In this document: piece after piece, positions 536 to 14,663 of the stretch
Position numbering within the stretch: the first letter of the stretch is position 1
Layout of the letters: the number at the start of each line of letters is the position of its first letter
Source of the DNA: Phycisphaerae bacterium
GTDB taxonomy: Bacteria > Planctomycetota > Phycisphaerae > UBA1845 > Fen-1342
NCBI GenBank assembly: GCA_030428945.1
Contig: JAUIEC010000001.1
Coordinates: 1-64,000, forward strand
Reading direction: 5' to 3'
DNA: 64,000 bases
Translations under genes and position numbers: made by a program
Notes under the pieces: model-generated
Database searches by the model: none
What the model was told of the DNA's origin: nothing
The model's input: only the letters and a program-made list of their open reading frames with translations

Positions 536-1326
536 CACGATCCATGCTTCGCCTGCAACTGCGTCCGCGTGTTTGGATCGAGCTGCTCGGCCGGGGGCAG
601 GGAGAGGCTTTCGCGGAAGGCGTTCATCGCGTCGCGGGTCTGCTGGTCGTATTCGCCGGTCTCGTCGCAGTCGAAGCCGAGGTTGCGCAGCCGCGTCTGC
701 ACGCCCTTCCAGGTTTCGATCGGGTCCAGGTCGCCGAGATCCAGGTCGTACTCCAGCACGTCCGGTTCGACGCCCACGACCAGCTTGCCGCGCCGGGCGT
801 TGCCCGGGATCGGCACGTCCAGCTTGCCCTCCGAGTCCGTCGTCCCGGTCAGCGTGCCGACCCCGTCGATCGTCAGCTTGAACGGTTCGTTCGCTCGCGG
901 AACGTCCTGGTCCAGGATCCGCAGCGACAGGTGCGACGGTTCACCCCGGCGGCGGAAGCGATGCCGCATCTCCGCCTGGCACGGCTCGGCCTTTCTGCGC
1001 AGCGGCGGAACCGTGATCCGGTCGCCCGCCATCAGCACGTTCGGCCGCTGTCGCAAGTCCGCCAGCGACGCGTTGGCCGGGTGCTGCCAGAGCGTCTTCC
1101 AGAAGTGCCCGGTCTGCCGCGCGATCGCCGAGACACACTCGCCCGCCCGAACCACGCGATCACCGCTGCCGGCGGGCTGCGCATCGGCCGCCCCGGCCAG
1201 CGGCTCGTCAGCCGGTTCGGGCGCGTCCGCCGCGTCATCCGCCGGGCCCACACCGCTGCTGGCCTGCAGAGCCTCGGCCAGCCGGCGGCTGTATTCGTTT
1301 GCATCGATCACGGCTTCCCTGGTCAT
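535..1326 (-). CDS. LysM-like and peptidoglycan-binding-domain protein linked to VgrG
   Basis: A 263-residue protein of unknown exact role. Residues about 55-110 look like a LysM-type carbohydrate-binding segment (RVVRAGECVSAIARQTG ... GDRITVPP). The last 60 residues resemble a peptidoglycan-binding repeat (VQTRLRNLGFDCDETGEYD). I see no signal peptide. The ATG overlaps the vgrG stop in an ATGA arrangement, so the two are translationally coupled. Genes directly behind vgrG commonly encode effectors or adaptors of type VI secretion, so a cell-wall-binding effector, adaptor or tail accessory is likely. No catalytic domain is visible, which argues against a lytic effector on its own. Confidence 0.7.
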   Translation of the reverse strand: MTREAVIDANEYSRRLAEALQASSGVGPADDAADAPEPADEPLAGAADAQPAGSGDRVVRAGECVSAIARQTGHFWKTLWQHPANASLADLRQRPNVLMAGDRITVPPLRRKAEPCQAEMRHRFRRRGEPSHLSLRILDQDVPRANEPFKLTIDGVGTLTGTTDSEGKLDVPIPGNARRGKLVVGVEPDVLEYDLDLGDLDPIETWKGVQTRLRNLGFDCDETGEYDQQTRDAMNAFRESLSLPPAEQLDPNTRTQLQAKHGS

Positions 1327-3557
1327 CAGGCACGCTCCCACGCTTCGGCGTCGAGATTGGTAAAGCTCACTTCGCACAGGTCCGGGTTCTTCAGCCGGAC
1401 CCGCGCCCGACCGGCCGCATCAAGCTGGCCGTGGATCACCTCGCCGTCGGGGGTCAGGATCTCGTAGGCCTCGTTCGGCCACGGCTGCCCGGACTCGTCG
1501 ATCATCTCCAGTTCGATCCACGAGGCCTCCTCGTCATCCTCGTCCGGCTTGGCCGACGGACGCTCGTTGACTTCGTCGTAGCGCGTGTCGCGGCCGGGGT
1601 CGGTGTCGAGCGCCTCGGCCACCTCGCCCTGCACATCGACCGAGACCGCGCTGCCGACCCCGGCGATCCCGCCGCTGTTCAGGTTCAGCATCGTCGCCAG
1701 CATCGTCAGGCTCTTCTCGTCGATCACCAGGAAGTTGCCGCCGGCCTTGATCGTCAGCTTCCGGCCCGCCTCGATCACGATCTCGTTGTCGGCCCGCAGG
1801 TAATAATCGCGCTCGACATGCTCGTGGTGATTCTGCCTGAAGCGCTCGGCCACGTTGCCGCTGACCTCGACGATCTTGTCGCCGCCGACCCGCAGCGCGT
1901 GGTCCAGGCCGACATCGCTCTTGCGGGACTTCTCGATCTTCTCGAGATCGTTCTCCCGGATCGTCGTGTGCCGCTCGTGCCCGACGTGCTCGACGCGATC
2001 GTTGCGCGTCCGCACGTGCAGGTCCTTCTGCGCGTGAATCAGGATGTGCTCTTCGTCGGTCTTGTCCTCGAAGCGAATCTCGTTGGTGCCCTGGCCGTCC
2101 GGCGTGCTGTTGGTCTTGATCGTGCTGCGGGTCTTGTGTTCCGGCAGCGCGTACGGCGGCATCTGGTCCGCGTTGTAGACCCGCCCGGTGATGATCGGCC
2201 GGTCCGGATTGCCTTCGAGGAAGTCGACGATCACCTCCTGGCCGACCCGCGGCAGGAACAGCATCCCATACTGCCCGCCGGCCGAGCCCTGGCTGACGCG
2301 AATCCAGCACGAACTGAACTCGTCGCGGTCGCCTTCGCGATCCCAGTGGAACTGGACCTTCACCCGGCCGTACTTGTCGGTGTAGATCTCCTCGCTCTCC
2401 GGGCCGACCACCAGCGCGGTCTGACTCCCCCAGACGCGCGGGCGGGGCGTGCTGCGGGCCGGACGGAACGGAACCGTGGCCGGGATGACGTGCCCCTCCA
2501 CCTGGTAGCCGCTGTCGTCGGTGTCGCCGGCCTCCTCCTCGCCACCCTGCGGGCTGGCCCCCTGGCAGCGGATCCCGGTCACCAGGTAGCGGGCGTTCAG
2601 GTCCGCCAGCGGGTGCTCCAGCAGTTCGAAGGTGTGCCCCGGCGTCAGCGTGCGGGCCGTTCCCGCCAGGCTCATGCCCCGGCGGCCGACCTCGTGCGCC
2701 TCCAGTCGCAACTGGGCGTAGCGCTCGCCGGCCGGGCGGTCGACGTAGTGATCGGGAAAGTCGTAGTCCTCGAGCGTGGCCCGCGCGTCGCCCGCCCGGT
2801 GCGAGTCCAGACGGTTGGCCGGGCGGACGAAGTCGAACGCCTCCAGGCTGACGGCCCCGCACTGCAGTTCGTGCCGCTCCTCGAACCGTGTGATGAACTC
2901 GGCCTGCTCGACCAGGCCCTGCGGATTGCGGAACGGAAAGCTGCCCGGGCTGGCCAGTTCCTGGCAGGCGACCGGGCTGTCGCCCAGCACCAGCGTATGC
3001 CCCTCCTCGTCCTGGTCGAAGAAGCAGAAGATGCCCTCTTCCTCCAGCAGGCGGGCGATGAAGTCCCACTCCGATTCGCGGTACTGCACGACGTACTCGC
3101 GCGGCGCGTAATCCCGTTCGAGCGCCAGGCGCAGGCTGTCGGCCGGCAGTCCGGCGTCGGCGATGACCTGGGCGACGATCCCGGGGACGCTCATGTCGGG
3201 GCAGTTGTGCTCCTGGAAGATCCGGCAGCCACGGCGGCGGGTCAGCAGCCAGTGCTGCGGGACCAGTTCCACGACATAGTCGCTGCGCCGGCCACGCTGT
3301 CCGATCCGCTGCATCGCCATGACGATGCCGTGCACGTGCCGGCTCTGCTCGGCCGCGACGATTTCGAGGTGCGCCGGGGCGCCGATCAGGTCGGCCAGGG
3401 GCAGGTCGGCCTGGTCGCAGGCGATTTCGATCCGATAACCGAAGAGCCGCCCAAGCTGCTCATCCCCGCTGAATCGCAGTACGCGGAGCGTCTCGTGGTC
3501 GACTCCGCCGATGCGGAGCAGGAAGTCCGCCTGGTTGGCCGCCTGTCGCTGGATCAT
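1326..3557 (-). CDS. vgrG: Type VI secretion tip protein VgrG (TssI)
   Basis: A 743-residue VgrG that forms the trimeric spike of the type VI secretion needle. The N-terminal half matches the gp27-like hub (LLRIGGVDHETLRVLRFSGDEQLGRLFGY; YRESEWDFIARLLEEEGIFC). An OB-fold/gp5 part follows (TDKYGRVKVQFHWDREG; SCWIRVSQGSAG; PRVGQEVIVDFLEGNPDRPII). The C-terminal part has beta-helix repeats (TIRENDLEKIEKS ... VGGDKIVEVSGN ... EIVIEAGRKLTIKAGG). The start at 3557 was chosen because GGAGGCGAACC precedes it; the frame stays open upstream but there is no good ribosome site there. It is followed by the coupled LysM-like gene. No other T6SS structural gene is adjacent; tssA lies 33 kb away. Confidence 0.93.
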   Translation of the reverse strand: MIQRQAANQADFLLRIGGVDHETLRVLRFSGDEQLGRLFGYRIEIACDQADLPLADLIGAPAHLEIVAAEQSRHVHGIVMAMQRIGQRGRRSDYVVELVPQHWLLTRRRGCRIFQEHNCPDMSVPGIVAQVIADAGLPADSLRLALERDYAPREYVVQYRESEWDFIARLLEEEGIFCFFDQDEEGHTLVLGDSPVACQELASPGSFPFRNPQGLVEQAEFITRFEERHELQCGAVSLEAFDFVRPANRLDSHRAGDARATLEDYDFPDHYVDRPAGERYAQLRLEAHEVGRRGMSLAGTARTLTPGHTFELLEHPLADLNARYLVTGIRCQGASPQGGEEEAGDTDDSGYQVEGHVIPATVPFRPARSTPRPRVWGSQTALVVGPESEEIYTDKYGRVKVQFHWDREGDRDEFSSCWIRVSQGSAGGQYGMLFLPRVGQEVIVDFLEGNPDRPIITGRVYNADQMPPYALPEHKTRSTIKTNSTPDGQGTNEIRFEDKTDEEHILIHAQKDLHVRTRNDRVEHVGHERHTTIRENDLEKIEKSRKSDVGLDHALRVGGDKIVEVSGNVAERFRQNHHEHVERDYYLRADNEIVIEAGRKLTIKAGGNFLVIDEKSLTMLATMLNLNSGGIAGVGSAVSVDVQGEVAEALDTDPGRDTRYDEVNERPSAKPDEDDEEASWIELEMIDESGQPWPNEAYEILTPDGEVIHGQLDAAGRARVRLKNPDLCEVSFTNLDAEAWERA

Positions 3558-3745
3558 GGTTCGCCTCCGCGCGTGTCCGCGGGGTCCGAGGCCCCGCTCC
3601 ACTTCGTCATCCGACAGGCGGCGCGGTGGTCCGCCAGATTTTCGGCGGTGGCGAAGTTCCGCGCAGCACACCTGGCGTTCGGCGGGTTGTATCGGACGTA
3701 GGAGGCGGTCGTGCCGCGCAGATGCTGCGCGGGCGAGAAGCGTGG

Positions 3746-3782
3746 AAGTGGTCGCCACTTTACCTATTTTGACACAAATAGG
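3746..3782. promoter_or_regulatory. Two adjacent perfect inverted repeats between vgrG and flgM
   Basis: AAGTGG-tcg-CCACTT (3746-3760) is followed two bases later by CCTATTT-tgacac-AAATAGG (3763-3782). They sit in an AT-richer part of the 442-base divergent gap between vgrG and flgM. Candidate operators or a terminator-like hairpin pair; nothing else in this gap was recognised. No convincing sigma-28 or sigma-54 promoter was found. Confidence 0.4.
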
Positions 3783-4275: not shown

Positions 4276-4286
4276 CGGAGGAAGTG

Positions 4287-4446
4287 CGATCACAGGCGGG
4301 ACGCCTGTGCCACATCAGTGGTCAGTGCAGATCACAGGCGGGACGCCTGTGCCACATCAGTGGTCAGTGCAGATCTCAGGCGGGACGCCTGTGCCGCATC
4401 AGTGGTTTGTGCAGAACACAGGCGGGACGCCTGTGCCGCATCAATC
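4287..4446. repeat. Four-copy 42-bp palindromic repeat array
   Basis: Four copies, exactly 42 bases apart, of ATCACAGGCGGGACGCCTGTG followed by a spacer ending GTCAGTGCAG. This is the same unit as the right half of the array at 1-470. It lies between flgM and queF, which converge on it. Confidence 0.85.
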
Positions 4447-4498
4447 CACGGCCTCACCAGAATCAAGGGCTCCCCAGGGGCCGTGGCGCCGGTTGGTG

Positions 4499-4876
4499 TC
4501 ACGGCCTTGCCTTGCGCCCCTTGCGGTATTCGGCTTCGACGATCGAGTGCAGACCGCCGCGGGGGGTCCATTCGGTGATGACCTGCAGCCAGCGGGGCTT
4601 AAGGACGGCCACCAGTTCGTCGAGAATCCGGTTGGTGACCTGTTCGTAGTAGATGCCCTCGTTTCGGAAGGCCTGCAGATAGAACTTGTAGCTCTTCAAC
4701 TCGACGCACAGCCGATCCGGGGTGTACGCCAGCCGGATGGTCCCGAAATCGGGCTGCCCGGTTACCGGACAGACGCTGGTGAATTCCGGGGCCACGTGCC
4801 GGATGACGTAGTCACGCTTCGGCTGGGGGTTCGGAAACGTCTCGAGACCGTGCTTGTGCTTCCTGAGGTTCGCCAT
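4499..4876 (-). CDS. queF: 7-cyano-7-deazaguanine (preQ0) reductase QueF, short type
   Basis: A 125-residue NADPH-dependent reductase that converts preQ0 to preQ1 in queuosine biosynthesis. This is the short, single-domain (YkvM-like) form. The catalytic motif [13 protein letters not shown] places the nucleophilic Cys at residue 36 and the general acid Asp at 43. The substrate signature [16 protein letters not shown] and the C-terminal TPRGG motif are present. The start at 4876 gives a family-typical N-terminus (MANLRKH); an ATG nine bases upstream is also possible. No other queuosine gene is adjacent. Confidence 0.92.
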
Positions 4877-5034: not shown

Positions 5035-5442
5035 ATGGAAACACGCGGTGGAATTCTGAGTGGCGTGGCCGAGCGGATGCTGGCGTGGGTCGGGTTCGCC
5101 CTGCTGCTGGTGATCGGCTTCGCGATCTACAACATCCCGGCCGCCACCAAGCAGGCGATCTGGGACGGGATCTGGAAGACGATCTTCTGGCTGGTGATCG
5201 TGGCCGCGCTGCCGTGGAGCGGGCGGTTGTTCATCAAACGGGTCGTCGAGGTCGGCGAGAACTGGGCCGGGCTGGCGATGATTGCGGCCTTCGTTCTGGT
5301 CGAACTGCTGGTGGGCTGGTTCCTGCTGACGAGCTGGCCGGGCAGCGGGTGGGGCTGGCTGGCGCTGATCGCGGCGGTGGCGGTGGCCGGTACGTATACT
5401 TATCTGGTCAGTGAGTACCTGGCCGAGATGGCGGGTGGATGA
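5035..5442 (+). CDS. Small four-helix membrane protein, unknown
   Basis: A 135-residue protein with four hydrophobic stretches (about residues 14-34, 45-61, 76-97 and 107-128) and short charged loops, so a compact inner-membrane protein. I do not recognise a family. It is the first gene of the same-strand run that continues into the kinase, the ESCRT-III-like genes and the AAA ATPase. The next gene starts 28 bases after its stop, so co-transcription is likely. A role as membrane anchor or partner of that system is possible but unsupported by motif. Confidence 0.65.
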   Translation: METRGGILSGVAERMLAWVGFALLLVIGFAIYNIPAATKQAIWDGIWKTIFWLVIVAALPWSGRLFIKRVVEVGENWAGLAMIAAFVLVELLVGWFLLTSWPGSGWGWLALIAAVAVAGTYTYLVSEYLAEMAGG

Positions 5443-5470
5443 GCGTGGACCGGAAGGGAAGGTCGAGCGG

Positions 5471-6550
5471 ATGACGGATCAGTACCAGGCGGGCACGCGG
5501 GTCAGCGAGTACGTTCTCGAGGAGCGGATCGGCGCCGGTTCGTTCGGCGAGGTCTGGCGGGCCCGACATCACATCTGGGATGGTGAGGCGGTCGCGATCA
5601 AGCTGCCGACCGAGCCGGACTACGTTCGCTACCTGCGCAAGGAAGGCCTGGTCGTGCACGGCCTGCGGCACACCAACATCGTCGGCGTCAAGGGACTCGA
5701 TCCGTACGCCGAGATTCCCTACCTGGTGATGGAACTGATCCAGGGTCCCGCCCTGCGCGAGGTGATCGACAAGCACCCGGGCGGTCTGCCGCTGCCGGTG
5801 GTCGAGACCGTGCTGTACGGCGTGCTGGCCGGCCTGCAGGTCGCCCACGACGCGAGCGTGCTGCACCGCGACCTGAAGCCCGGCAACGTCCTGCTGCATC
5901 TGCCCGAAGGCCGGCTCGAGGATCTCGGCGTCGACGACGTCAAGCTGAGCGACTTCGGCCTCGGCTCCGGGGCGACCGACACGCTTCGCTCGCTGGCGCA
6001 GTCGGCTTCGCTCGACCGTGACAACCGCCTGGTCGGAACGCTGGCGTACATGGCGCCGGAACTGCGCGAGGGCACCGGCCAGGCCGACCCGCGCTCGGAC
6101 CTGTACGCGCTCGGCGTGATGCTCTTCGAGATGCTCACCGGCGAACGTCCGGCCGGGACCGAGATGCCCAGCGATCTGCGCGACGACCGGCTGCCGGCCG
6201 CGTACGACGATTTGTTCCGCAAGCTGTACACGCGACGCGACCGGCGGATCGCCAGTGCGGCCGAGGTGCTCGATTTTCTCGGCAAGCGTCTGGCGCCGGC
6301 GGCGGTGTCGGCGGGGGTCGGGCTTCCGCCGCTGCCGAACGCGGGTCGTCGCGCGGCGCCGGTGTCGGCCGGTGCTTCGGGCGGGAAGTGTCCGCAGTGC
6401 CAGGCGCAGGTTGAGCCGTACGATCAGTTCTGCACGCAGTGCCGGCACCAGTTGGTGGCGCAGGTCCGGATCTGTCCGAGTTGCGGGGCCTACCCGGGTC
6501 CGGCGGACAAGTTCTGCATTTTCTGCGGGCTGAAGCTGCCGGACCAGTAG
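5471..6550 (+). CDS. Soluble Ser/Thr protein kinase with C-terminal double zinc ribbon
   Basis: A 359-residue Hanks-type kinase. The glycine loop GAGSFGEV is at 21-28, the ATP lysine at 44 (VAIKL), HRDLKPGN at 132-139, DFG at 161-163, and GTLAYMAPE just before 197, so all catalytic elements are present. Residues about 308-355 hold two CxxC...CxxC zinc ribbons (CPQCQAQVEPYDQFCTQC; CPSCGAYPGPADKFCIFC). There is no transmembrane helix. The ATG at 5471 follows GGAAGGGAAGG; an earlier start would overlap the upstream gene. It is ten bases upstream of a zinc-ribbon membrane protein and heads the ESCRT-III-like/Vps4-like cluster, so it may regulate that machinery by phosphorylation. Confidence 0.9.
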   Translation: MTDQYQAGTRVSEYVLEERIGAGSFGEVWRARHHIWDGEAVAIKLPTEPDYVRYLRKEGLVVHGLRHTNIVGVKGLDPYAEIPYLVMELIQGPALREVIDKHPGGLPLPVVETVLYGVLAGLQVAHDASVLHRDLKPGNVLLHLPEGRLEDLGVDDVKLSDFGLGSGATDTLRSLAQSASLDRDNRLVGTLAYMAPELREGTGQADPRSDLYALGVMLFEMLTGERPAGTEMPSDLRDDRLPAAYDDLFRKLYTRRDRRIASAAEVLDFLGKRLAPAAVSAGVGLPPLPNAGRRAAPVSAGASGGKCPQCQAQVEPYDQFCTQCRHQLVAQVRICPSCGAYPGPADKFCIFCGLKLPDQ

Positions 6551-6559
6551 GAGCACGCC

Positions 6560-6835
6560 ATGAGTGTCGCATTCTGGGTGCTGGTTGCGATCATGGTCGG
6601 CTTCGTCGGTTTCTGGTTGCTGGCCCTGACGTTGATCGTCCAGGTGTTCCGTTCGCTGCTGGGTGCGTTCCGTCGCCGCCGGGTGCGGGGTTCCTCGCGG
6701 CGCATGGTCGGCGGGGTGGTGCCGCAGGTCTGCCCGCACCAGGGCTGTGGTCATCTGAATCCGCGCCCCGGGTTATACTGCTCCCGTTGTGGACGGAACC
6801 TGAGAGAGCGGCGCGAGATCGACGCGTATGGATGA
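6560..6835 (+). CDS. Single-pass membrane protein with cytoplasmic zinc ribbon
   Basis: A 91-residue protein. Residues 5-30 form one transmembrane helix, followed by a strongly basic patch (FRRRRVRGSSRR) and a zinc ribbon CPHQGCGHLN...CSRCGRNL. The positive-inside rule puts the ribbon in the cytoplasm. Its last codons overlap the next gene (ATGGATGA), indicating coupled translation. The zinc ribbon resembles those on the kinase just upstream, suggesting the two proteins could meet or bind a common partner. No exact family is recognised. Confidence 0.75.
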   Translation: MSVAFWVLVAIMVGFVGFWLLALTLIVQVFRSLLGAFRRRRVRGSSRRMVGGVVPQVCPHQGCGHLNPRPGLYCSRCGRNLRERREIDAYG

Positions 6836-8264
6836 TCGCAGCACGCAGCGCGAGTTCGAAGACCAGTTCCTGCGCCAGTTGCGGGCCCGGGCCGTCAACC
6901 TGGCGGGCACCAAGCTGCCGGCCGACGAGGTCGTGGCCGAGGCGACCAACGAGGGGGTCGACTCGACGCGGGCCGAACTGAGCCGCCTGGGCGTCTACGA
7001 CACCGATCTGTTCGAATCGCTGCCGGGGCTTTCGAGTCTGCAGCTTCGTTTTCGCAAGAAGATGCTGGGCGGACTGCTGAATACCACCAGGGTCCGCCTG
7101 CGGGCCCGGGTGCTGGTGGACACGGCCGCCCTGGTGGAGGGGCGGGCGCCGGCCCCGATGGGGCGCGAGGACGTGCGGCTGGCGCTGGCCCGCTACGAGG
7201 TGCTGCCGCGCAGCCAGAAGCCCAGCGCGGTGGTGCTGGCCAGCCCGACGGGTTTCACCGAGGATGCCCGCCGGCTGATCGAGGGCACCGAGCCGACGCT
7301 GATCCTGATCGGCGGGCGGGCGGATGGCGGCTGGGACGTGAACGTCCCCGAGAAGTACCGCAAGTCGCCGTGGGCCAAGCTGTTCGAGCTCGAAACGCGG
7401 GACGATCGGATCCGTCGCCTGCAGTATCATCTGGAGCAGGCCGGTCCGGAACTGGACGCGCGCGGCATCTCGATCGAGAGCCTCGGCGAGAAGATGGGGC
7501 TGGGGCGGCTGGAGACCGAGGCGCTGGTTCGTCGGGCCTGTCGCCAGGACGCACGACTGATGACGGTCGCGTACGATGGCCGGCAGATCCTGACGCGATC
7601 GCCGTTTGCAGACAAAGGCAGCACCATGAGTATCTGGAGTCGCTTGAAACGCCTTCTGGGCCTGAAGCCGAGCACCGCCGAGCGGATCCGCGAACTGAAC
7701 GCCCAGCGGATTCAGCTCGAGAACCAGCGCGGTGACGAAGACCAGCGGGTCGACACCCTCGAAAGCCAGGAGCGCGACCTGCTCAAGCAGGGTGCCGCGG
7801 CCGAGACCAGGGTCGAGAAGCAGCAGCTTGCCGGCCGGCTGGTCCGGGTCCGCCGGGACCTGAAGCGCGTCAAGGCCCAGCAGCAGTTGCTGACCCAGCA
7901 GTTGAACATCATCAGCACCCAGATGCACAACCTGACGATGGCCGAGCAGGGCAAGCGGGTGGATCTGCCCAAGGCCGAGGACCTGACCACCGCGGCGGCC
8001 GAGGCCGAGCAGGTCGTCAGCGAACTGGCGGCCAACGCGGACCTGGCGGCCAGCATCGAGGTGGCGGGTGAGACGCCGATGATGAACGAGGAGCAGGACG
8101 CGATCCTGGCCGAGTTCGAGGAACTGGCGGCGACGCCGGAGGCGGATGCGGCCGCGGACACGGCGGCGACGCCGGCGGAGCGTGAGGTACCGTCCGAGCC
8201 GGACCCGGCCGCGGCGACGCGTCGCAAGGCGGACGGGGAATCGGCCCGCCCCGAGATGAACTGA
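6828..8264 (+). CDS. Winged-helix protein fused to an ESCRT-III-like coiled-coil domain
   Basis: A 478-residue protein. Residues 1-185 are an unrecognised alpha/beta region (PSAVVLASPTGFTEDARRL; PTLILIGGRADGGWDVNVP). Residues about 190-258 read as a winged helix (RIRRLQYHLEQAG ... IESLGEKMGLGRLETEALVRRA ... TVAYDGRQILTRSP). Residue 267 starts an amphipathic segment MSIWSRLKRLLGL, then two long charged helices (282-375) and a C-terminal tail with MMNEEQDAILAEFEEL (418-433) and a disordered acidic/Ala end. Hairpin plus acidic tail is the ESCRT-III layout, and winged helix plus ESCRT-III recalls CHMP7 and CdvB. An in-frame ATG at 7626, preceded by AAAGG, could yield a separate 212-residue protein close in size to the two neighbours. 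The ESCRT relation is inferred from pattern, not from a search. Confidence 0.6.
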   Translation: MDDRSTQREFEDQFLRQLRARAVNLAGTKLPADEVVAEATNEGVDSTRAELSRLGVYDTDLFESLPGLSSLQLRFRKKMLGGLLNTTRVRLRARVLVDTAALVEGRAPAPMGREDVRLALARYEVLPRSQKPSAVVLASPTGFTEDARRLIEGTEPTLILIGGRADGGWDVNVPEKYRKSPWAKLFELETRDDRIRRLQYHLEQAGPELDARGISIESLGEKMGLGRLETEALVRRACRQDARLMTVAYDGRQILTRSPFADKGSTMSIWSRLKRLLGLKPSTAERIRELNAQRIQLENQRGDEDQRVDTLESQERDLLKQGAAAETRVEKQQLAGRLVRVRRDLKRVKAQQQLLTQQLNIISTQMHNLTMAEQGKRVDLPKAEDLTTAAAEAEQVVSELAANADLAASIEVAGETPMMNEEQDAILAEFEELAATPEADAAADTAATPAEREVPSEPDPAAATRRKADGESARPEMN

Positions 8265-8379
8265 TGCACGGAGCAGTGTCGGGGCGCGTGGGCGCCGGGA
8301 GGCCCGGGTCGTGGCCGGGGTGCTGGGTCGTGTCCGCCGGGCTCGGAAGCCGCCCGCCCTTCCGAGGAGCACGGAGCGT

Positions 8380-8985
8380 ATGAATTTCTTTTCCTGGCTG
8401 ACATCGAAGCGGAAGACGCTGGCGACGATGAGCGTGGCCGAGTTGCGGGCCCAGGAGATGCTGATCGATGCCGAGCGGCGTCGGATGCAGGCGAAGATCT
8501 CGCAACTGGCGAAGAACAAGCAGAAGGTGATTGCCCAGGGCGCCAGCGAGAAGACGCCGGAGATGCGGCGGACGCTGGCGCAGCAGTACGATCTGCTGCA
8601 CACCGAGCAGAGCATGCTGGCCCGGCACCTGAACGTGCGGAGCAAGGAGCACCTGACGGTCTCGCGTCTGCGGATCCTGCGCGAGTCGGCCGAGCGGAGC
8701 CGGAGCGGTGCGGGCATGATCGGCCGGATCCGCGACTCGGACCTGGCGTTGATCGAGCGGCTGATCGAATCGGACAGCGTGACGAGCGAGGTCTACCAGG
8801 AGCGCCTGGACGAGATCCTGCAGATCGGTGCCCAGGCGGACGAAGCCTCGGCGGGCCTGTCCCCGGCGGCGGACGAACTGCTGAAGGTCTGGGACGCGAT
8901 GGACCACGGCCTGATCGAAAACAACGACGCGGCCTTCGACGAAGCCGAGAAGCGTGTTCGAGAGCGGGGGAAAGCCGCGGAATGA
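8380..8985 (+). CDS. ESCRT-III-like coiled-coil protein
   Basis: A 201-residue helical protein with no transmembrane segment. It opens with a short hydrophobic/basic stretch (MNFFSWLTSKRK) that could be a membrane-inserting amphipathic helix. Residues 20-55 and 60-105 form two long charged helices joined by a short turn (GASEKTP), the helical hairpin typical of ESCRT-III and PspA/Vipp1. Shorter helices and an acidic tail follow (IERLIESDSVTSEVYQERLDEIL; DHGLIENNDAAFDEAE). The ATG at 8380 follows GAGGAG and GGAG. It lies between two further proteins of similar build, and close to a Vps4-like ATPase. An unrelated coiled-coil protein remains possible. Confidence 0.6.
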   Translation: MNFFSWLTSKRKTLATMSVAELRAQEMLIDAERRRMQAKISQLAKNKQKVIAQGASEKTPEMRRTLAQQYDLLHTEQSMLARHLNVRSKEHLTVSRLRILRESAERSRSGAGMIGRIRDSDLALIERLIESDSVTSEVYQERLDEILQIGAQADEASAGLSPAADELLKVWDAMDHGLIENNDAAFDEAEKRVRERGKAAE

Positions 8986-9023
8986 GTAAGCAAGTGAGCA
9001 AGTAAGCAGGTAAGCAAGGAGCA
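8984..9023. repeat. 8-bp-period tract (AAGTAAGC family), left copy
   Basis: Octamers such as AAGCAAGT and GAGCAAGT run directly from the stop codon of the upstream gene. The inverted counterpart lies at 9480-9521, so the two tracts bracket the four-helix-bundle gene. Confidence 0.8.
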
Positions 9024-9077
9024 TGCTCGTACGTCAGGGCGTTCTCCGCGCGGAAGTCTGATCTCGGGGGGGATTGG

Positions 9078-9491
9078 ATGATCAGGCGATTCGAGGATCT
9101 GCAATGTTGGCAGCTTGGCCGGGCTCTGTTTCGAGAGGTGCACCGTCTGACGCATGCTGCGGGGTGGTCGAAGGACCGTCCGTTGCGGGACCAGATGTGC
9201 CGGGCTGCGATCAGTATCTCGAGCAACATTGCGGAAGGATATGAACGAGGCAGTCGCAGGCAGCAGATCGAGTTCTGTTTCATCGCCCGTGGTTCCGCAG
9301 GCGAGTTGCGGAGTCAGGCCGTGCTGGCCCACGACGCGGGCCTGATTGAGGACGACGCGTACCGCAGTCTCTATCGCGCCTGCGAGGAGTGTTCGAAGGT
9401 GCTGTATGGGTACATCCGTTCGTTGCAGCGGGATGCCGCGCGGTATCCGGGGCAGAAGTTCGAGGCCGCATCAGAACAGGACACTTGCTGA
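9078..9491 (+). CDS. Four-helix-bundle protein of the S23/Avd-like family
   Basis: A 137-residue protein with the hallmarks of the small four-helix-bundle family first met as ORFs inside 23S rRNA intervening sequences: MIRRFEDLQCWQLGRALFRE at the N-terminus, then LRDQMCRAAISISSNIAEGYERGS, then IARGSAGELRSQ. Relatives include Avd of diversity-generating retroelements, but no reverse transcriptase is present here. It interrupts the ESCRT-III-like run and is flanked by inverted octamer tracts, which suggests insertion as a cassette. Cellular role unknown; the family forms pentameric, positively charged assemblies that bind nucleic acid or partner proteins. Confidence 0.85.
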   Translation: MIRRFEDLQCWQLGRALFREVHRLTHAAGWSKDRPLRDQMCRAAISISSNIAEGYERGSRRQQIEFCFIARGSAGELRSQAVLAHDAGLIEDDAYRSLYRACEECSKVLYGYIRSLQRDAARYPGQKFEAASEQDTC

Positions 9492-9521
9492 CTTGCTTAC
9501 CTGCTCACTTGCTTACTGAGG
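9480..9521. repeat. 8-bp-period tract (GCTTACTT family), right copy
   Basis: ACTTGCTTACCTGCTCACTTGC-type octamers, the reverse complement of the tract at 8984-9023. It overlaps the last codons of the four-helix-bundle gene and ends eight bases before the next ATG. Confidence 0.8.
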
Positions 9522-9528
9522 ATTCCTC

Positions 9529-10140
9529 ATGGGATTGTTCAAGTCAAAAGAAGAACGCCGCATGGAGCGGGACATCAGGATTCGCCAGGGGATCCGGCGG
9601 ATTGAGAAGTCGATTGCCGAGCAGAACAAGTTCTCGGACGAGTTCATCAAGAACGCCCGGCACGCCAAGCAGATCGGCGACATGGCCAGCTACAACTTCA
9701 TCCGCAATTCGCTGAAGAAGACGGCCACGATCAAGCGGATGCTCGAGCGGCAGTTGCTGGCGGTCAAGAACGCCCTGCTGATCAAGCGGCAGGCCGAGGC
9801 CTCGGCCGACTTCGCCGGGGCGATGAAGACGATGGCCTCGGAGGTCAGCCGGATGTACGGCGAGACCGACCTGGTCAAGACGCAGATGGACTGGGAAAAG
9901 GCGATGATGCAGTCCCAGACGATGGAGGAACGGATGGAGATGTTCCTCGACTCGGTCCAGGAAGGGGCCGAAGGCGACATCGCCGCCAGCAGCGAAGCGA
10001 TCACCGACGACGAGATCGACCGGATGATCTCGGCCGAGGAACAGGTCGAAGCCGCCCGCGAAGACGCCCAGATGTCCGCCCTGCGGGCCGAACTGAACGA
10101 ACTCAAGGGCGAGGCGTCGGGGGACAAAGAAAGCAAGTAA
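9529..10140 (+). CDS. ESCRT-III-like protein with a MIM1-like C-terminal motif
   Basis: A 203-residue, almost wholly helical protein whose layout closely follows CHMP/Vps2-type ESCRT-III subunits. A short basic-amphipathic N-terminus (MGLFKSKEERR) leads into a long helical hairpin (about 12-90, turn near 50). Then come AMKTMASEVSRM (98-109), EKAMMQSQTMEERMEMFLDS (123-142), an acidic stretch with ITDDEIDRMI, and finally ALRAELNELK at 184-193. The last fits the L-x3-L-x2-L-K/R spacing of MIM1 motifs that dock onto Vps4 MIT domains. It is encoded 82 bases upstream of exactly such an ATPase. GAGGA precedes the ATG. The homology is inferred by eye from layout and a recalled CHMP2A sequence. Confidence 0.68.
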   Translation: MGLFKSKEERRMERDIRIRQGIRRIEKSIAEQNKFSDEFIKNARHAKQIGDMASYNFIRNSLKKTATIKRMLERQLLAVKNALLIKRQAEASADFAGAMKTMASEVSRMYGETDLVKTQMDWEKAMMQSQTMEERMEMFLDSVQEGAEGDIAASSEAITDDEIDRMISAEEQVEAAREDAQMSALRAELNELKGEASGDKESK

Positions 10141-10218
10141 GCAGGTAAGCAAGTAAGCAAGGTTGGTCGGTGTGATCCTGCCTTGCTCACTTGGTTACTT
10201 GGCACTTGCTGACTGATT
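10132..10218. repeat. Inverted pair of 8-bp-period tracts between the ESCRT-III-like and AAA genes
   Basis: A forward tract (AAGTAAGC-type, about 10132-10171) and a reverse tract (GCTCACTTGGTTACTTGG-type, about 10184-10215) could pair as a long hairpin. They fill the 82-base gap, so transcription between the two genes would pass through this structure. Confidence 0.75.
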
Positions 10219-10222
10219 CATC

Positions 10223-11347
10223 ATGGCAACCTTCGCAACATTCAAACGACTGAAGGACAAGGGTGTCGCCGCGATGAAGTTCGGCGACTATGTCGCGGCC
10301 AAGCCGTACCTGATCCAGGCGGCCGAGTGCATGATTGAACTGGCCGAGGAGAACAAGGATCCGCAGCAGCGGGCCGACCAGGAGGCCTACGCCCGGGAGC
10401 TGATCGAACTGGCCAAGTCCTGCGACGCCAAGGCCCGCAAGCAGTCCGGCGGGACCCGCAGCAAGAGCGACCGCGTCGGCAACGACGACGAGGAGGGCGC
10501 CGACGCGAGCGACTGGATCGTCAGGGATCGCCCCAACATCCGCTTCGACGACATCGCCGGACTCGACGACGTCAAGCAGGAAATCTACCTGAAGATGATC
10601 TACCCGTTCGCGCACCCCGAACTGGCCCAGCACTTCGGGATCGATGTCGGCGGCGGCGTGCTGCTCTTCGGGCCGCCCGGAACCGGCAAGACGATGATCG
10701 CCAAGGCCGTCGCCTGCGAACTCGACGCGACCATGTTCGTCATCTCGCCCGCCCAGATGATGAGCAAGTGGGTCGGCGAGGCCGAACAGAACGTCCGCAA
10801 ACTGTTCGAGGCCGCCAAGGAAGAGGAAAAGGCCGTCATCTTCATGGACGAGTGCGAGGCCCTCGTGCCGAAACGGCGCGGCGGCGGATCGACCGTCATG
10901 CAGCGGGTCGTCCCGCAGATCCTGCAGGAACTCGAAGGCTTCGACCGCAAGTCCGGCCGGGCCCTGATGTTCCTCGGCGCGACCAACGAACCGTGGCAGA
11001 TCGACCCCGCGATGATGCGCCCCGGGCGACTCGACGCCAAGGTCTACGTCCCGCTGCCCGACGCGGCCGCCCGCTTCCGCCTGCTCGAGATCTACATGGG
11101 CAAGCGCCCGCTGGGCGAGGATGTCGACTTCGCCGAACTGGTCGAGCGGACGCAGGGCTACAGCGGGGCCGACATGCGGGCGATCGCGAGTCGTGCGGCA
11201 ACTCTGCCGTTTTTGGAATCGGTCCGGACCGGCGAAACTCGTAAGATATCCAGGGCGGATATTCTCCAGGTGCTGGAAGACATGCCGCCCTCGGTCAGCC
11301 CGAAAGACGTCCACAAGTACGAGGAGTGGGCCGCGCTGACCACCTGA
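10223..11347 (+). CDS. Vps4/katanin-clade AAA ATPase with N-terminal MIT-like domain
   Basis: A 374-residue AAA ATPase. Residues 1-73 form a three-helix MIT-like bundle (FKRLKDKGVAAMKFGDYVAAKPYLI), followed by an acidic linker. The AAA domain has FDDIAGLDDVKQEI (108-121), Walker A GPPGTGKT (150-157), pore loop SKWVGE (181-186), Walker B VIFMDE (205-210), sensor 1 in GATNEPW (252-258), arginine residues in MMRPGR, and SGADMRAI for sensor 2. GATNxPW, the VYVPLPD strand and the C-terminal PPSVSPKDVHKYEEW are signatures of the meiotic clade (Vps4, katanin, spastin) rather than FtsH or CDC48. The predicted role is disassembly of ESCRT-III-like polymers encoded just upstream. The upstream ribosome site is weak. 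Confidence 0.85.
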   Translation: MATFATFKRLKDKGVAAMKFGDYVAAKPYLIQAAECMIELAEENKDPQQRADQEAYARELIELAKSCDAKARKQSGGTRSKSDRVGNDDEEGADASDWIVRDRPNIRFDDIAGLDDVKQEIYLKMIYPFAHPELAQHFGIDVGGGVLLFGPPGTGKTMIAKAVACELDATMFVISPAQMMSKWVGEAEQNVRKLFEAAKEEEKAVIFMDECEALVPKRRGGGSTVMQRVVPQILQELEGFDRKSGRALMFLGATNEPWQIDPAMMRPGRLDAKVYVPLPDAAARFRLLEIYMGKRPLGEDVDFAELVERTQGYSGADMRAIASRAATLPFLESVRTGETRKISRADILQVLEDMPPSVSPKDVHKYEEWAALTT

Positions 11348-11362
11348 TCCCGGAGACGACGC

Positions 11363-13105
11363 ATGGCCCGCGACATCCTCGACCAACTCCGCGACGAAGC
11401 GCTGCTGGCGCTCAGCTTCGCCGGACGCGAGTGGCCCAGCGGCCTGCTCTCGCGAACGGTCATCCCCGACAAGTGGATCGGCCTGGTCGAGAGCGCCGAC
11501 GGACGCCGCCGCTTCGTCCCGGCTGGTGACGCGCCGCGGGCCGAGGACGGCGACCGCATCACGCTCGTCCGCAACCGCCCGCTGGTCGTCCCGCTCGAAA
11601 CCCGCGACTGCCGCAGCGAGGATGGCGACGTCGTGCACGGCCGCTGCGCCGTGTTCCTGCGCTGGCCGTCCGAGGAGCACGAACTGGCGGCGCTCCGCAA
11701 GACGCTGCTGCCGGGCGGACGACTGAACAGTGACGACCTCGCCCGACACGTGGCCGACCGCGGCGGCGTGCAGGGCCTGCGGGACTTCATCGCCCGCCAG
11801 CAGGCCGGCCCGCTGGTCCGCAGCGACGTCACCGAGGCACTGACCGAGGCGATGCGGGCGGCACTGCAGAAGTTCTGCTTCGAAAGCGGCGCGCGAATCG
11901 AGCGGGTGGCCGAGGTCGCCTTCGAGAGCACGACGCTCGACACGCGCGAACGGCTCGAACGCCAGACGCAGCGCCGCCTGGCCGAGATCCGCGCCCGCGA
12001 AATGGTCGAGCAGGCGGCCGCCCAGGCGACGCAGCGGCGCCTCGGCGAACTGTCCGGCGTGCTCGACAAGCTCAACGACGCCGCGTCGAGCGACGCCGAG
12101 GGCAACTGGCACGAACTGCTGCCGGCCCTCTCGCCGACCGAGCGCGGCGAACTGCTGGCGAACCTCTGGCGGATCACGCCCGATCAGCAGTCGACCGAGC
12201 GAATCGCCGTGGTGGCCGGGCAGATGTGCCTGCTGCTCGATCCGTCCGATCCCCGGCGTCCGCTGCGCGAGGTCGAACTGCCGGGCGACCTCGGCAGGCT
12301 GCGCTCGGTCGCCTACGCCGCGGAGCGGGATCGCCTGCTGATCGGCGCGGCCGAGGGCATCTGGTCGCTGTCGGCCGATGCCCAGGGCGTTCCGCAGCCC
12401 TACCCGGTGCCGGACATCGAGCGGCAGGGCACCGGCTTCAACGCGGTCGCGGCGCTGGCCGATGCGTACTACGCGACGCACTCGGCCCTGGGCTGCTGGC
12501 GCTGGGCGATCGACGACCCGCGGAACGCCGCGCAGATCTTCGCGGCCGGTGGCGAGGTCGGTCGCGTGCGCGCGGCGATTGCGGCCGGCGATGGTCGGCT
12601 GCTGTTCTCGGCCGACCGGACGCTGCACGCGTACGATCCGGAGGCCGACGAGGTCGCGGCGCTCGGCGAGATGCCCGGGACGATCGCGGCGATCAGCGTG
12701 CTGGACGGCGTCGCGTATGTCGGCACGTCGGACGGCGCGCTGCTGGAGTTGCGGCTGGAAGCCGGGGCCGTGCCGCGGACGTTGCAGCAGTTGCACAGCG
12801 GGGTCGAGTCGATCGTCGCGCGGCGCTGGAACGACCTGGTCGAACTGGTCGTGCCGGCCGGCCGCGAGGGGGTGCAGGGTGTCTACGGCAGCGAGCGGAT
12901 CACGGCGACGGTGCTGGCCAGCAGGGAGCCGATTCGTCGGGCGTGGGCCTGCGACGACGTGGTGGTGGCGCTGAACGACCGCCGCGACGCGCTGGTGATC
13001 TCGTATCCCCGCAAGAGCCCGACGCCGGTGACGGTTCCGCTCGCCCGACAGGTCGGGCACTCTCTTCAGGACGCCTGCCTGATCAGCAAACCGGTCTCCG
13101 CGTGA
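11363..13105 (+). CDS. SPFH/band-7-like domain protein with C-terminal beta-propeller-like repeats
   Basis: A 580-residue soluble protein. Residues about 60-215 resemble an SPFH/band-7 domain followed by its coiled coil: PLETRDCRSEDGDVVHGRCAV, FLRWPSEEHELAAL, GGRLNSDDLARHVA, then a helical stretch with ERLERQTQRRLAEIRAREM. Residues about 280-580 contain repeating beta-rich units (LLIGAAEGIWSLSAD; LLFSADRTLHAYDPEADEV; VAYVGTSDGALLELRLEAG; VVALNDRRDALVISYP) typical of a WD40/PQQ-like propeller. There is no transmembrane helix. It begins 15 bases after the ATPase gene with GGAG upstream, so it closes the same operon. SPFH proteins scaffold membranes, so a membrane-sensing or scaffold role beside the ESCRT-like proteins is plausible. 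Both domain calls are by eye. Confidence 0.55.
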   Translation: MARDILDQLRDEALLALSFAGREWPSGLLSRTVIPDKWIGLVESADGRRRFVPAGDAPRAEDGDRITLVRNRPLVVPLETRDCRSEDGDVVHGRCAVFLRWPSEEHELAALRKTLLPGGRLNSDDLARHVADRGGVQGLRDFIARQQAGPLVRSDVTEALTEAMRAALQKFCFESGARIERVAEVAFESTTLDTRERLERQTQRRLAEIRAREMVEQAAAQATQRRLGELSGVLDKLNDAASSDAEGNWHELLPALSPTERGELLANLWRITPDQQSTERIAVVAGQMCLLLDPSDPRRPLREVELPGDLGRLRSVAYAAERDRLLIGAAEGIWSLSADAQGVPQPYPVPDIERQGTGFNAVAALADAYYATHSALGCWRWAIDDPRNAAQIFAAGGEVGRVRAAIAAGDGRLLFSADRTLHAYDPEADEVAALGEMPGTIAAISVLDGVAYVGTSDGALLELRLEAGAVPRTLQQLHSGVESIVARRWNDLVELVVPAGREGVQGVYGSERITATVLASREPIRRAWACDDVVVALNDRRDALVISYPRKSPTPVTVPLARQVGHSLQDACLISKPVSA

Positions 13106-13385: not shown

Positions 13386-14663
13386 ATGTTTCGCGGTCTC
13401 AAGTGCGCTTGTCTGGTCTGGACCTGCTTGGCCATGGCACCCGGCGTGCAGGCGGACGAGCATCGGATTGCCGTGCTGACGGGTTCGCAGGAAACGACGC
13501 CCACGGGTTCGCCCGCGATCGGCTGCGCGACGTTCGTGATCGACCCCGTCGCGAACACGGTTTCGTACTACATCGTCTTCTCCGGCCTGGTCGGCGCTGA
13601 AACGGCCGCGCACATCCACGGCTACTCCGGTCCCGGGGCGAACTCCTCGCCGAAGCACACGCTGCCGGCCGGCAATCCGAAGGTCGGCGTCTGGAACTAC
13701 GCGGAGGCGGACGAGCCGGACATTCTCGGCGGGCGGGCCTACGTCAACATTCACTCCACGGTCCACGGCGGCGGCGAGATTCGCGGGCAGATCGTGACGC
13801 ACTTCGCGCAGCTTGACGGCGCCCAGGAAACGACGCCGACCGGATCGCCGGCGACGGGCTGGGCGGTCTTCAATGCGGACACCGCGGCCAACACGCTCAG
13901 CTATCACATCGTGCACAACGTTGTCGGCGAGACCGTGGCGCACCTGCACGGTTATGCGGCCCACGGCGGCGGTGCGCCGCCGGTGCACACGCTGCCGCCG
14001 GGCAGCCCGAAGGTCGGTACCTGGAACTACACCGAGTCGGTCGAGCAGGCGATTCTCGATGGGATGGTCTACGTCAACATTCACAACGCCACCAACCCGA
14101 GCGGCGACATTCGCGGGCAGGTCGTGCGAACGGTCGCGCCGGTGGACGGCACCCAGGAAGTCCCGGGCAACGTGACGCCCGGGGCGGGCTTCGGGCTGAT
14201 TTCGATCGATCGCGTCAACGATGTGCTCGGCTACGACATCGGGCACGCGGGGCTGATCGGGGCCGAGAACAACGCGCACATCCACGGCTTCGCGGTCCCG
14301 GGGGTCTCGGCCGGTGTCCTGCACCCGCTGGCGCTCGGCGCCCGCAAGCTGGGCGCATGGAACTACGCGGCCGGACAGGAGGCCGACATCCTGGCGGGCC
14401 TGACGTACATCAACATTCACTCGACGTTCGACGGCAGCGGTGAGATCCGCGGCCAGATCGAGCCGCCGCCGCTGCCGTGCCCGGGTGATGCCGACTGCGA
14501 CGGCGATGTTGACCTGTCCGACCTGGCGGCGCTGCTGGGCTCGTTCGGCAGTGTCTTCGGTGACCCGTCCTACCACGCCGGTGCCGATACCGACGGCGAC
14601 GGCGACAACGACCTCAGCGACCTCGCCACGATTCTGTCCCTGTTTGGCGCCAGTTGTCCGTGA
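13386..14663 (+). CDS. Secreted triple-CHRD-domain protein with dockerin-like C-terminus
   Basis: A 425-residue secreted protein. A signal peptide ends near residue 23 (GVQA/DEH). Three CHRD domains follow, at about 27-138, 140-255 and 256-362, each with the pattern AHIHGY/F, KVGxWNY and YVNIHST..GGGEIRGQI. CHRD domains were defined in chordin and also occur widely in bacterial secreted proteins; their ligand is not established. The C-terminal 60 residues (CPGDADCDGDVDLSDLAALLGSFG ... DTDGDGDNDLSDLATILSLFG) form a paired calcium-binding dockerin-like module common at the ends of planctomycete exported proteins. An AGAAGGAGA ribosome site precedes the ATG. It stands alone. Confidence 0.9.
   Translation: MFRGLKCACLVWTCLAMAPGVQADEHRIAVLTGSQETTPTGSPAIGCATFVIDPVANTVSYYIVFSGLVGAETAAHIHGYSGPGANSSPKHTLPAGNPKVGVWNYAEADEPDILGGRAYVNIHSTVHGGGEIRGQIVTHFAQLDGAQETTPTGSPATGWAVFNADTAANTLSYHIVHNVVGETVAHLHGYAAHGGGAPPVHTLPPGSPKVGTWNYTESVEQAILDGMVYVNIHNATNPSGDIRGQVVRTVAPVDGTQEVPGNVTPGAGFGLISIDRVNDVLGYDIGHAGLIGAENNAHIHGFAVPGVSAGVLHPLALGARKLGAWNYAAGQEADILAGLTYINIHSTFDGSGEIRGQIEPPPLPCPGDADCDGDVDLSDLAALLGSFGSVFGDPSYHAGADTDGDGDNDLSDLATILSLFGASCP

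What the first reader, a model, noticed from the sequence alone, without database searches (positions are those of the whole stretch)
5035..13105. Candidate bacterial ESCRT-III/Vps4-like membrane-remodelling operon
Nine same-strand genes combine a Vps4/katanin-clade AAA ATPase with an MIT-like N-terminus, three small helical proteins with the ESCRT-III layout (amphipathic N-terminus, long hairpin, acidic tail), a winged-helix fusion, an SPFH-like scaffold, and a zinc-ribbon kinase with a zinc-ribbon membrane protein. Seen: the motifs and gene order. Known: bacteria have PspA/Vipp1 as distant ESCRT-III relatives, but a dedicated Vps4-type partner is characteristic of archaea and eukaryotes. Inferred: these products act together. 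Planctomycetes have unusual inner-membrane invaginations, which makes the idea attractive.
Basis: partly seen in the sequence, partly recalled or inferred. Interest (0 to 1): 0.93.

Follow-up and report, generated by a model that had tools for sequence, protein, structure and literature searches.

The report
Bacterial ESCRT-III/Vps4-like membrane-remodelling operon
A planctomycete-like bacterial genome with no detectable FtsZ carries a conserved gene cluster that pairs a protein predicted to fold like ESCRT-III filament subunits with a Vps4-like ATPase, and together they would likely bend, cut or seal membranes, a kind of machine that recent surveys assign to archaea and eukaryotes only.

Summary
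The protein at 9529-10140 (SnfC) belongs to a large Planctomycetota family whose profile picks ESCRT-III proteins as its best five PDB sequences (best E 0.0096). Foldseek's first 19 hits for its predicted model are ESCRT-III superfamily, none below E 0.001. Its tail has a MIM1-like motif in 79 of 80 relatives. The next gene (10223-11347) is a single-AAA ATPase with a predicted three-helix N-domain and a Vps4_C end above Pfam's cut-off; its profile aligns nearly end to end with archaeal CdvC (E 6e-73). The two genes are both present or both absent in 58 of 61 relatives, and 27 of 38 long loci share one seven-gene order. Not supported: ESCRT-III identity of 7626-8264 and 8380-8985, and an SPFH domain (11363-13105 matches WD40-type propellers). 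Trees leave the ATPase's origin open. The genome lacks FtsZ, but so do nearly all Planctomycetota sampled, most without this cluster, so a division role is only a hypothesis. Membrane action is inferred. Ten searches of open papers found no report of this operon.

The parts
5035..5442 (+). TM1: small protein, hydrophobic stretches by eye; first gene of the conserved order
   Evidence: No Pfam match at E<=1; homologue in 36 of 38 full-flank loci. No transmembrane predictor was run.
5471..6550 (+). Ser/Thr protein kinase with C-terminal double zinc ribbon
   Evidence: Pkinase E 2.7e-35, DZR 1.2e-07; homologue in 37 of 38 full-flank loci.
6560..6835 (+). Small protein with possible zinc ribbon and membrane segment (by eye)
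   Evidence: Only sub-threshold zinc-ribbon matches; tblastn match in some relative loci, e.g. L037, L038, L041, L048, L049.
6828..8264 (+). wHSnf: N-terminal domain plus C-terminal helical part (7626-8264)
   Evidence: Homologue in 37 of 38 full-flank loci; the two parts are separate ORFs in L074 and L078; Snf7 match of the C-part in 1 of 20 members, E 0.044; C-part related to SnfB (hhalign 95.4%, E 1.7e-8).
8380..8985 (+). SnfB: small helical protein of unresolved fold
   Evidence: Homologue in 36 of 38 full-flank loci; no Snf7 match in 24 members; one weak PDB match, ATG16 coiled coil, E 0.024.
9078..9491 (+). 23S rRNA-intervening-sequence four-helix bundle protein; variable insert, probably not part of the system
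   Evidence: PF05635 E 1e-29, TIGR02436 E 2.7e-30; in 13 of 30 relative loci incl. the window.
9529..10140 (+). SnfC: ESCRT-III-like protein
   Evidence: Profile A2 against PDB: best five rows CHMP3, CHMP3, Snf7, Snf7, CHMP2A; Snf7 in 17 of 32 members; model helices 7-49, 52-110, 115-153, 160-198; Foldseek first 19 hits ESCRT-III superfamily.
10081..10107 (+). MIM1-like tail motif LRAELNELK of SnfC
   Evidence: Pattern in the last 35 residues of 79 of 80 relatives; 0.9% of shuffled tails. Comparison with MIM1 is recalled.
10223..11347 (+). AAA1: Vps4-like single-AAA ATPase
10232..10447 (+). MIT-sized three-helix N-domain of AAA1
   Evidence: Helices 4-19, 23-43, 47-75; block pLDDT 90-97 up to residue 70; sequence evidence split between TPR and MIT.
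11363..13105 (+). Protein with WD40-type propeller in its C-terminal half; N-terminal half unassigned (no SPFH found)
   Evidence: No Pfam match at E<=1; the family profile matches propeller proteins in PDB, best E 4.7e-24 (60 of 102 rows shown); homologue in 30 of 38 full-flank loci, once on the other strand.

Best explanation
The cluster encodes a bacterial ESCRT-III/Vps4-like module in which SnfC (9529-10140) would likely polymerise on the inner membrane and AAA1 (10223-11347) is predicted to pull subunits out of the polymer, so that the membrane is bent, cut or sealed. In this mechanism SnfC sits on the membrane through its N-terminal segment and helical hairpin; AAA1 grips the MIM1-like tail of SnfC with its MIT-sized N-domain and threads subunits through its hexamer (conserved SKWVGE loop, pore role recalled); the kinase, the small membrane-like proteins, wHSnf, SnfB and the propeller protein would place and regulate the polymer. 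Shown by calls: homology and predicted fold of SnfC, domain architecture of the ATPase, co-occurrence and gene order. Inferred: polymerisation, membrane binding, SnfC-AAA1 contact, the role of every other gene, and the cellular process, for which I put general inner-membrane scission or repair before cell division.
For: SnfC profile against PDB: the best five of 177,635 distinct sequences are ESCRT-III proteins (E 0.0096 to 0.29), the next two have E above 5; two other families of the operon searched the same way gave other coiled coils. Snf7 is the only family matched by more than 3 of 32 members (17). Predicted helix layout and Foldseek's first 19 hits. Conserved MIM1-like tail in 79 of 80. 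ATPase: Vps4_C above cut-off, three-helix N-domain, near end-to-end CdvC alignment, best VIA chain an archaeal Vps4. Linkage: SnfC and AAA1 both present in 48 and both absent in 10 of 61 relatives; all 13 genomes with AAA1 at E<1e-110 are among the 20 with SnfC in a sample of 294; 27 of 38 loci with one gene order; 14 of 16 distant loci with an AAA1 or AAA2 match.
Against: SnfC's Snf7 score is below the gathering cut-off in the window protein (19.1 against 27.3) and in all ten members listed singly (best 27.2). The profile from 13 close members found nothing in PDB. No Foldseek hit below E 0.001, and VIA places unrelated helical proteins close to Snf7. The N-domain matches TPR in 14 of 25 members and MIT in 1; its profile against fungal Vps4 scores only 1.2% probability. 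The ATPase groups with neither CdvC nor Vps4 in the free trees and Foldseek ranks p97 first. One SnfC-negative genome, G142, has an AAA1-like match at E 2.9e-101. No direct evidence for membrane binding or polymerisation.
Confidence: 0.6

Rival explanations
1. The cluster is an AAA unfoldase with coiled-coil adaptors in a kinase-controlled protein-remodelling complex; SnfC, SnfB and wHSnf are adaptors or substrates, not a membrane polymer, and the ESCRT resemblance is generic to long helical hairpins.
Against: Sequence profile and Foldseek agree on ESCRT-III superfamily for SnfC and not for the sister families; MIM1-like tail; near end-to-end CdvC alignment of the ATPase.
Confidence: 0.2
2. 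The cluster is a Cdv-like cell-division machine that takes the place of FtsZ in these bacteria.
For: No FtsZ/tubulin match in the window genome or in any of 39 good relatives. [quoted passage not shown] SnfC is strongly conserved, 63-86% identical across the relatives that have it.
Against: FtsZ matches are missing from 291 of 294 sampled phylum genomes, of which only 20 have SnfC; 10 of 61 close relatives lack FtsZ, SnfC and AAA1. So FtsZ-free division does not need this cluster.
Confidence: 0.12
3. SnfC is a divergent PspA/Vipp1-type stress protein whose polymer seals the membrane without ATP-driven turnover, and the ATPase is a general chaperone.
For: PspA and Vipp1 chains are among Foldseek's first 19 hits; the window genome has no PspA_IM30 match and 9 of 61 relatives have one, so another protein could do that task.
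Against: PspA_IM30 is not among the families matched by any of 32 SnfC members at E<=0.1 while Snf7 is matched by 17; no PspA or Vipp1 sequence among the PDB rows up to E 10; SnfC and AAA1 are gained or lost together; five of the 49 relatives with SnfC also have PspA.
Confidence: 0.08

Closest known systems
Archaeal Cdv/ESCRT systems (CdvB = ESCRT-III, CdvC = Vps4)
   Same: ESCRT-III-like gene next to a single-AAA ATPase with N-terminal helical domain and Vps4_C-type end; near end-to-end profile alignment with CdvC. Archaeal loci also hold winged-helix, Ser/Thr kinase or SPFH genes (PMC10936438, passages).
   Different: Bacterial; the ATPase scores 228.5 against NCBI's CdvC cut-off of 650 and does not group with CdvC; has SnfB, wHSnf and propeller genes without assigned counterparts; no SPFH found.
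Eukaryotic ESCRT-III (CHMP3, CHMP2A, Snf7) and Vps4
   Same: SnfC's best PDB sequence matches and first Foldseek hits; MIM1-like tail (comparison recalled); Vps4_C.
   Different: Below Pfam's Snf7 cut-off; Glu where MIM1 has Arg (recalled); N-domain not clearly MIT by sequence.
Bacterial PspA/Vipp1
   Same: Same superfamily by fold ranking; proposed membrane role.
   Different: No PspA_IM30 match in 32 members; SnfC travels with a Vps4-like ATPase, while a 2023 review says bacteria lack a clear Vps4 homologue (PMC7615534, passages).
Bacterial VPS4-like and PspA/Snf7-AAA+ neighbourhoods of Ravi et al. 2024 (PMC11237479, passages)
   Same: VPS4-like AAA+ ATPases in bacteria, and some bacterial PspA or Snf7 proteins near AAA+ ATPases: a partial precedent.
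   Different: There the VPS4-like ATPases stand without snf7, or the AAA+ protein has two AAA domains; the word planctomycet does not occur in the main text. Their supplement was not available to me, so overlap with this family is not excluded.
Cdc48/p97
   Same: Foldseek's first hits; mean identity to the p97/Cdc48 D2 pieces 42% (these pieces hold the AAA part only, whereas the 33% for CdvC there includes N-terminal columns).
   Different: One AAA domain, three-helix N-domain, no second AAA domain.

Membership tests
ESCRT-III (Snf7/CHMP/CdvB) for SnfC | Snf7 profile score above the curated cut-off | tested here: not met
   Window 19.1 bits, best of ten listed members 27.2, cut-off 27.3; still the only family matched by more than 3 of 32 members.
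ESCRT-III (Snf7/CHMP/CdvB) for SnfC | ESCRT-III helix layout and fold | tested here: met
   Prediction only, mean pLDDT 76.5; Foldseek first 19 hits ESCRT-III superfamily, none below E 0.001.
ESCRT-III (Snf7/CHMP/CdvB) for SnfC | C-terminal MIT-interacting motif | tested here: inconclusive
   MIM1-like pattern in 79 of 80 close relatives, different tail in other classes; binding not tested.
ESCRT-III (Snf7/CHMP/CdvB) for SnfC | Polymer on membrane | not testable with these tools
   Needs protein and lipid.
ESCRT-III for SnfB and wHSnf C-part | Snf7 similarity or ESCRT-III fold | tested here: inconclusive
   Sequence: 0 of 24 and 1 of 20 members; fold not predicted.
Vps4/CdvC for AAA1 | Single AAA domain with Vps4_C end | tested here: met
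   AAA E 1.5e-38, Vps4_C 24.3 against 21.3.
Vps4/CdvC for AAA1 | N-terminal MIT domain | tested here: inconclusive
   Three-helix bundle predicted; Pfam MIT 1 of 25, TPR_2 14 of 25; VPS4B MIT E 0.079 among PDB rows; CdvC N-terminus 27.9%; fungal Vps4 1.2%. VIA rows cover 91-374 only.
Vps4/CdvC for AAA1 | Placement in the Vps4/CdvC clade | tested here: inconclusive
   Not grouped in the free trees; AU test does not reject AAA1+CdvC+Vps4 (p 0.239).
CdvC equivalog (NF041006) | Score above NCBI's cut-off | tested here: not met
   228.5 against 650 bits.
PspA/Vipp1 (PF04012) for SnfC | PspA_IM30 profile match | tested here: not met
   Not among the 20 families matched by any of 32 members at E<=0.1.
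SPFH/Band-7 for 11363-13105 | SPFH domain | tested here: inconclusive
   No Pfam match at E<=1; PDB rows shown are propeller-type matches to the C-terminal half (60 of 102 rows); N-terminal half not modelled.

The most novel reading that the evidence does not exclude
Probability: 0.2. Interest if true: 0.96.

Novelty: new variant of a known kind. Interest (0 to 1): 0.86.

Why it matters
[quoted passage not shown] A bacterial pair inherited as a unit would change that picture. It would also give a genetic handle on how some FtsZ-free bacteria shape and cut membranes; which protein drives division in Phycisphaerae is raised as an open question in PMC6952346 (passages). Whether the ATPase is old or a second recruitment of an AAA protein to an ESCRT-III-like polymer becomes a testable question.

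Tried and rejected
SPFH scaffold: not found; propeller matches instead. Winged helix: helix-turn-helix matches only at E 0.3 or weaker. Transfer of the ATPase from the sampled archaeal CdvC: not supported, since AAA1, AAA2, CdvC and Vps4 each form one group; deep order unresolved, long branches flagged (own_L169, own_L170). Row L171 was left out and all three own-genome paralogues out. FtsZ absence as support for a division role: uninformative, as 291 of 294 phylum genomes lack it. PSI-like step: the first profile A1 of 13 close members found nothing in PDB; the signal came with the broader A2. PF03357 over the whole own genome gave no match at E<=0.001. Viral fold library: no hit below E 0.001, a Megaviridae Snf7 protein second. 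Complementarity of PspA and SnfC: 4 of 12 SnfC-negative and 5 of 49 SnfC-positive relatives have PspA, too few to use. Complex prediction and models of SnfB or wHSnf could not be run.
Full report
What is there. Nine + strand ORFs fill 5035-13105. Pfam and NCBIfam identify a Ser/Thr kinase with double zinc ribbon (5471-6550), a 23S rRNA-intervening-sequence protein (9078-9491) and an ATPase with AAA, AAA_lid_3 and Vps4_C (10223-11347; Vps4_C 24.3 bits against cut-off 21.3). The protein at 9529-10140, called SnfC here, has one sub-threshold family, Snf7 (E 0.0011, 19.1 bits against 27.3). The window lies in a 5.5 Mb genome, 94.7% complete. Of 143 confirmed SnfC loci in named genomes the best 80 were kept; their titles name Phycisphaerae, Phycisphaerales, Phycisphaera, Planctomycetota, Planctomycetaceae or planctomycete, except one titled Alphaproteobacteria and one titled just bacterium.

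Origin of the ATPase. In trees AAA1, AAA2, CdvC and Vps4 each form one group with full bootstrap. The first tree, which kept N-terminal columns, joined AAA1 with a TPR-AAA paralogue of the same genome (100/100); with the core only and a mixture model this fell to 91/83 and was flagged as long branches meeting. Without own-genome paralogues a weak branch (86/67) puts AAA1 with Cdc48 and AAA2 with CdvC and Vps4. AU tests reject none of four groupings at 0.05 (AAA1+CdvC+Vps4 p 0.239, AAA1+AAA2 0.378, AAA2+CdvC+Vps4 0.502, AAA1+CdvC 0.0825). Only Sulfolobales/Desulfurococcales-type CdvC and fungal Vps4 were sampled. Recent transfer from the sampled CdvC is not supported; the deep origin is open.

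Linkage. Of the 80 named loci 38 have full flanks; the order TM1-kinase-wHSnf-SnfB-SnfC-AAA1-propeller is identical in 27 of 38, and AAA1 lies on SnfC's strand in 31 and on the other strand in 2. Of 19 SnfC genomes elsewhere in the phylum sample I fetched long loci for 16; 14 of 16 have an AAA1 or AAA2 match, in L079 only a 49-bit piece near the contig end about 4 kb away, and L072 and L084 have none. The models were built partly from these loci. Ten of the 16 carry AAA2, a second ATPase whose N-terminal region and AAA align with Vps4 and CdvC. Across 61 relatives SnfC and AAA1 are both present in 48, both absent in 10, SnfC alone in 1 (G025) and AAA1 alone in 2 (G018, G022); G025 and G018 are under 90% complete and all three are in 580 or more contigs. 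In family f4 three genomes have both and seven have neither. In the phylum sample 20 of 294 have SnfC and 13 have AAA1 at E<1e-110, all 13 among the 20. I set the AAA1 threshold at the gap in the E-values; G142, without SnfC, comes next at 2.9e-101. Genomes are related, so the counts are not independent.

Other genes. SnfB and the wHSnf C-part are homologous (hhalign 95.4%, E 1.7e-8), not detectably related to SnfC (0.8% and 5.4%). In L074 and L078 the two parts of wHSnf are separate ORFs. The 11363-13105 family matches propeller proteins over its C-terminal half.

Function. I propose membrane remodelling by a SnfC polymer that AAA1 takes apart. The window genome has no FtsZ and no PspA match, but 291 of 294 phylum genomes also lack an FtsZ match, and 10 of 61 relatives lack FtsZ, SnfC and AAA1. 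One relative, G013 (8% contamination), has an FtsZ match. I therefore rank a division role below general membrane scission or repair.

Literature. Ten searches of open PMC papers, no preprints, listed no paper that by title or abstract start reports a planctomycetal ESCRT-III/Vps4 operon. I saw passages only, no whole papers. [quoted passage not shown] PMC7615534 says bacteria lack a clear Vps4 homologue. PMC11237479 reports bacterial VPS4-like ATPases without snf7 and some bacterial PspA/Snf7 neighbourhoods with AAA+ ATPases, a partial precedent whose supplement I could not see. PMC8281802 leaves open whether an ATPase serves Vipp1 as Vps4 does ESCRT-III. PMC6952346 and PMC5147048 describe FtsZ-free division in Phycisphaerae.

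Noticed in passing
L073:8574-9758, L075:1698-2912, L077, L078:8052-9272, L080:7411-8646, L082, L083, L085, L086, L087: A second ATPase (AAA2) lies upstream of SnfC in 10 of 16 distant loci; it has an MIT-like N-terminal region and an SRFEKKI stretch like Vps4, and no copy was seen in the window's locus.
   Followed up: partly
window 9078-9491 and gaps between SnfC and AAA1 in L040, L043, L046, L048, L049: The spaces inside the operon hold unrelated small genes in different genomes: a 23S rRNA-IVP protein here (13 of 30 loci), elsewhere ORFs that by eye look like nucleotidyltransferases, a HEPN-MNT-like pair and a Mut7-C/PIN-like protein. It may be an insertion hot spot.
   Followed up: partly
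G000:C31:256209-257000 (L169): The same genome has a 535-residue TPR-AAA open frame whose AAA core joins AAA1 in two of the trees with long branches; a possible source of AAA1.
   Followed up: partly
L032 (G023:C1:52000-70000): In this complete-contig relative SnfC stands alone among the window's gene set within 18 kb, while AAA1 lies at G023:C1:3509454-3510560: the pair is kept although the operon is broken up.
   Followed up: partly
G142:C95:2691-3743: A same-class genome without SnfC has an AAA1-like ATPase covering most of the profile (15-370, E 2.9e-101).
   Followed up: no
wHSnf C-terminus, window about 8240-8264, and alignment A7: After a variable acidic, proline-rich linker many wHSnf proteins end in PEA, PEM or PQA; reason unknown.
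   Followed up: no
window 1326-3758 (-): Large minus-strand ORF that by eye looks like a VgrG-type protein; not scanned.
   Followed up: no
window 4284-4649: ORF with a repeated peptide (QAGRLCHISGQCRS-like), probably a short tandem DNA repeat upstream of the operon; not analysed.
   Followed up: no
window 13386-14663: Downstream ORF with repeated segments and a dockerin-like C-terminus by eye; not scanned.
   Followed up: no
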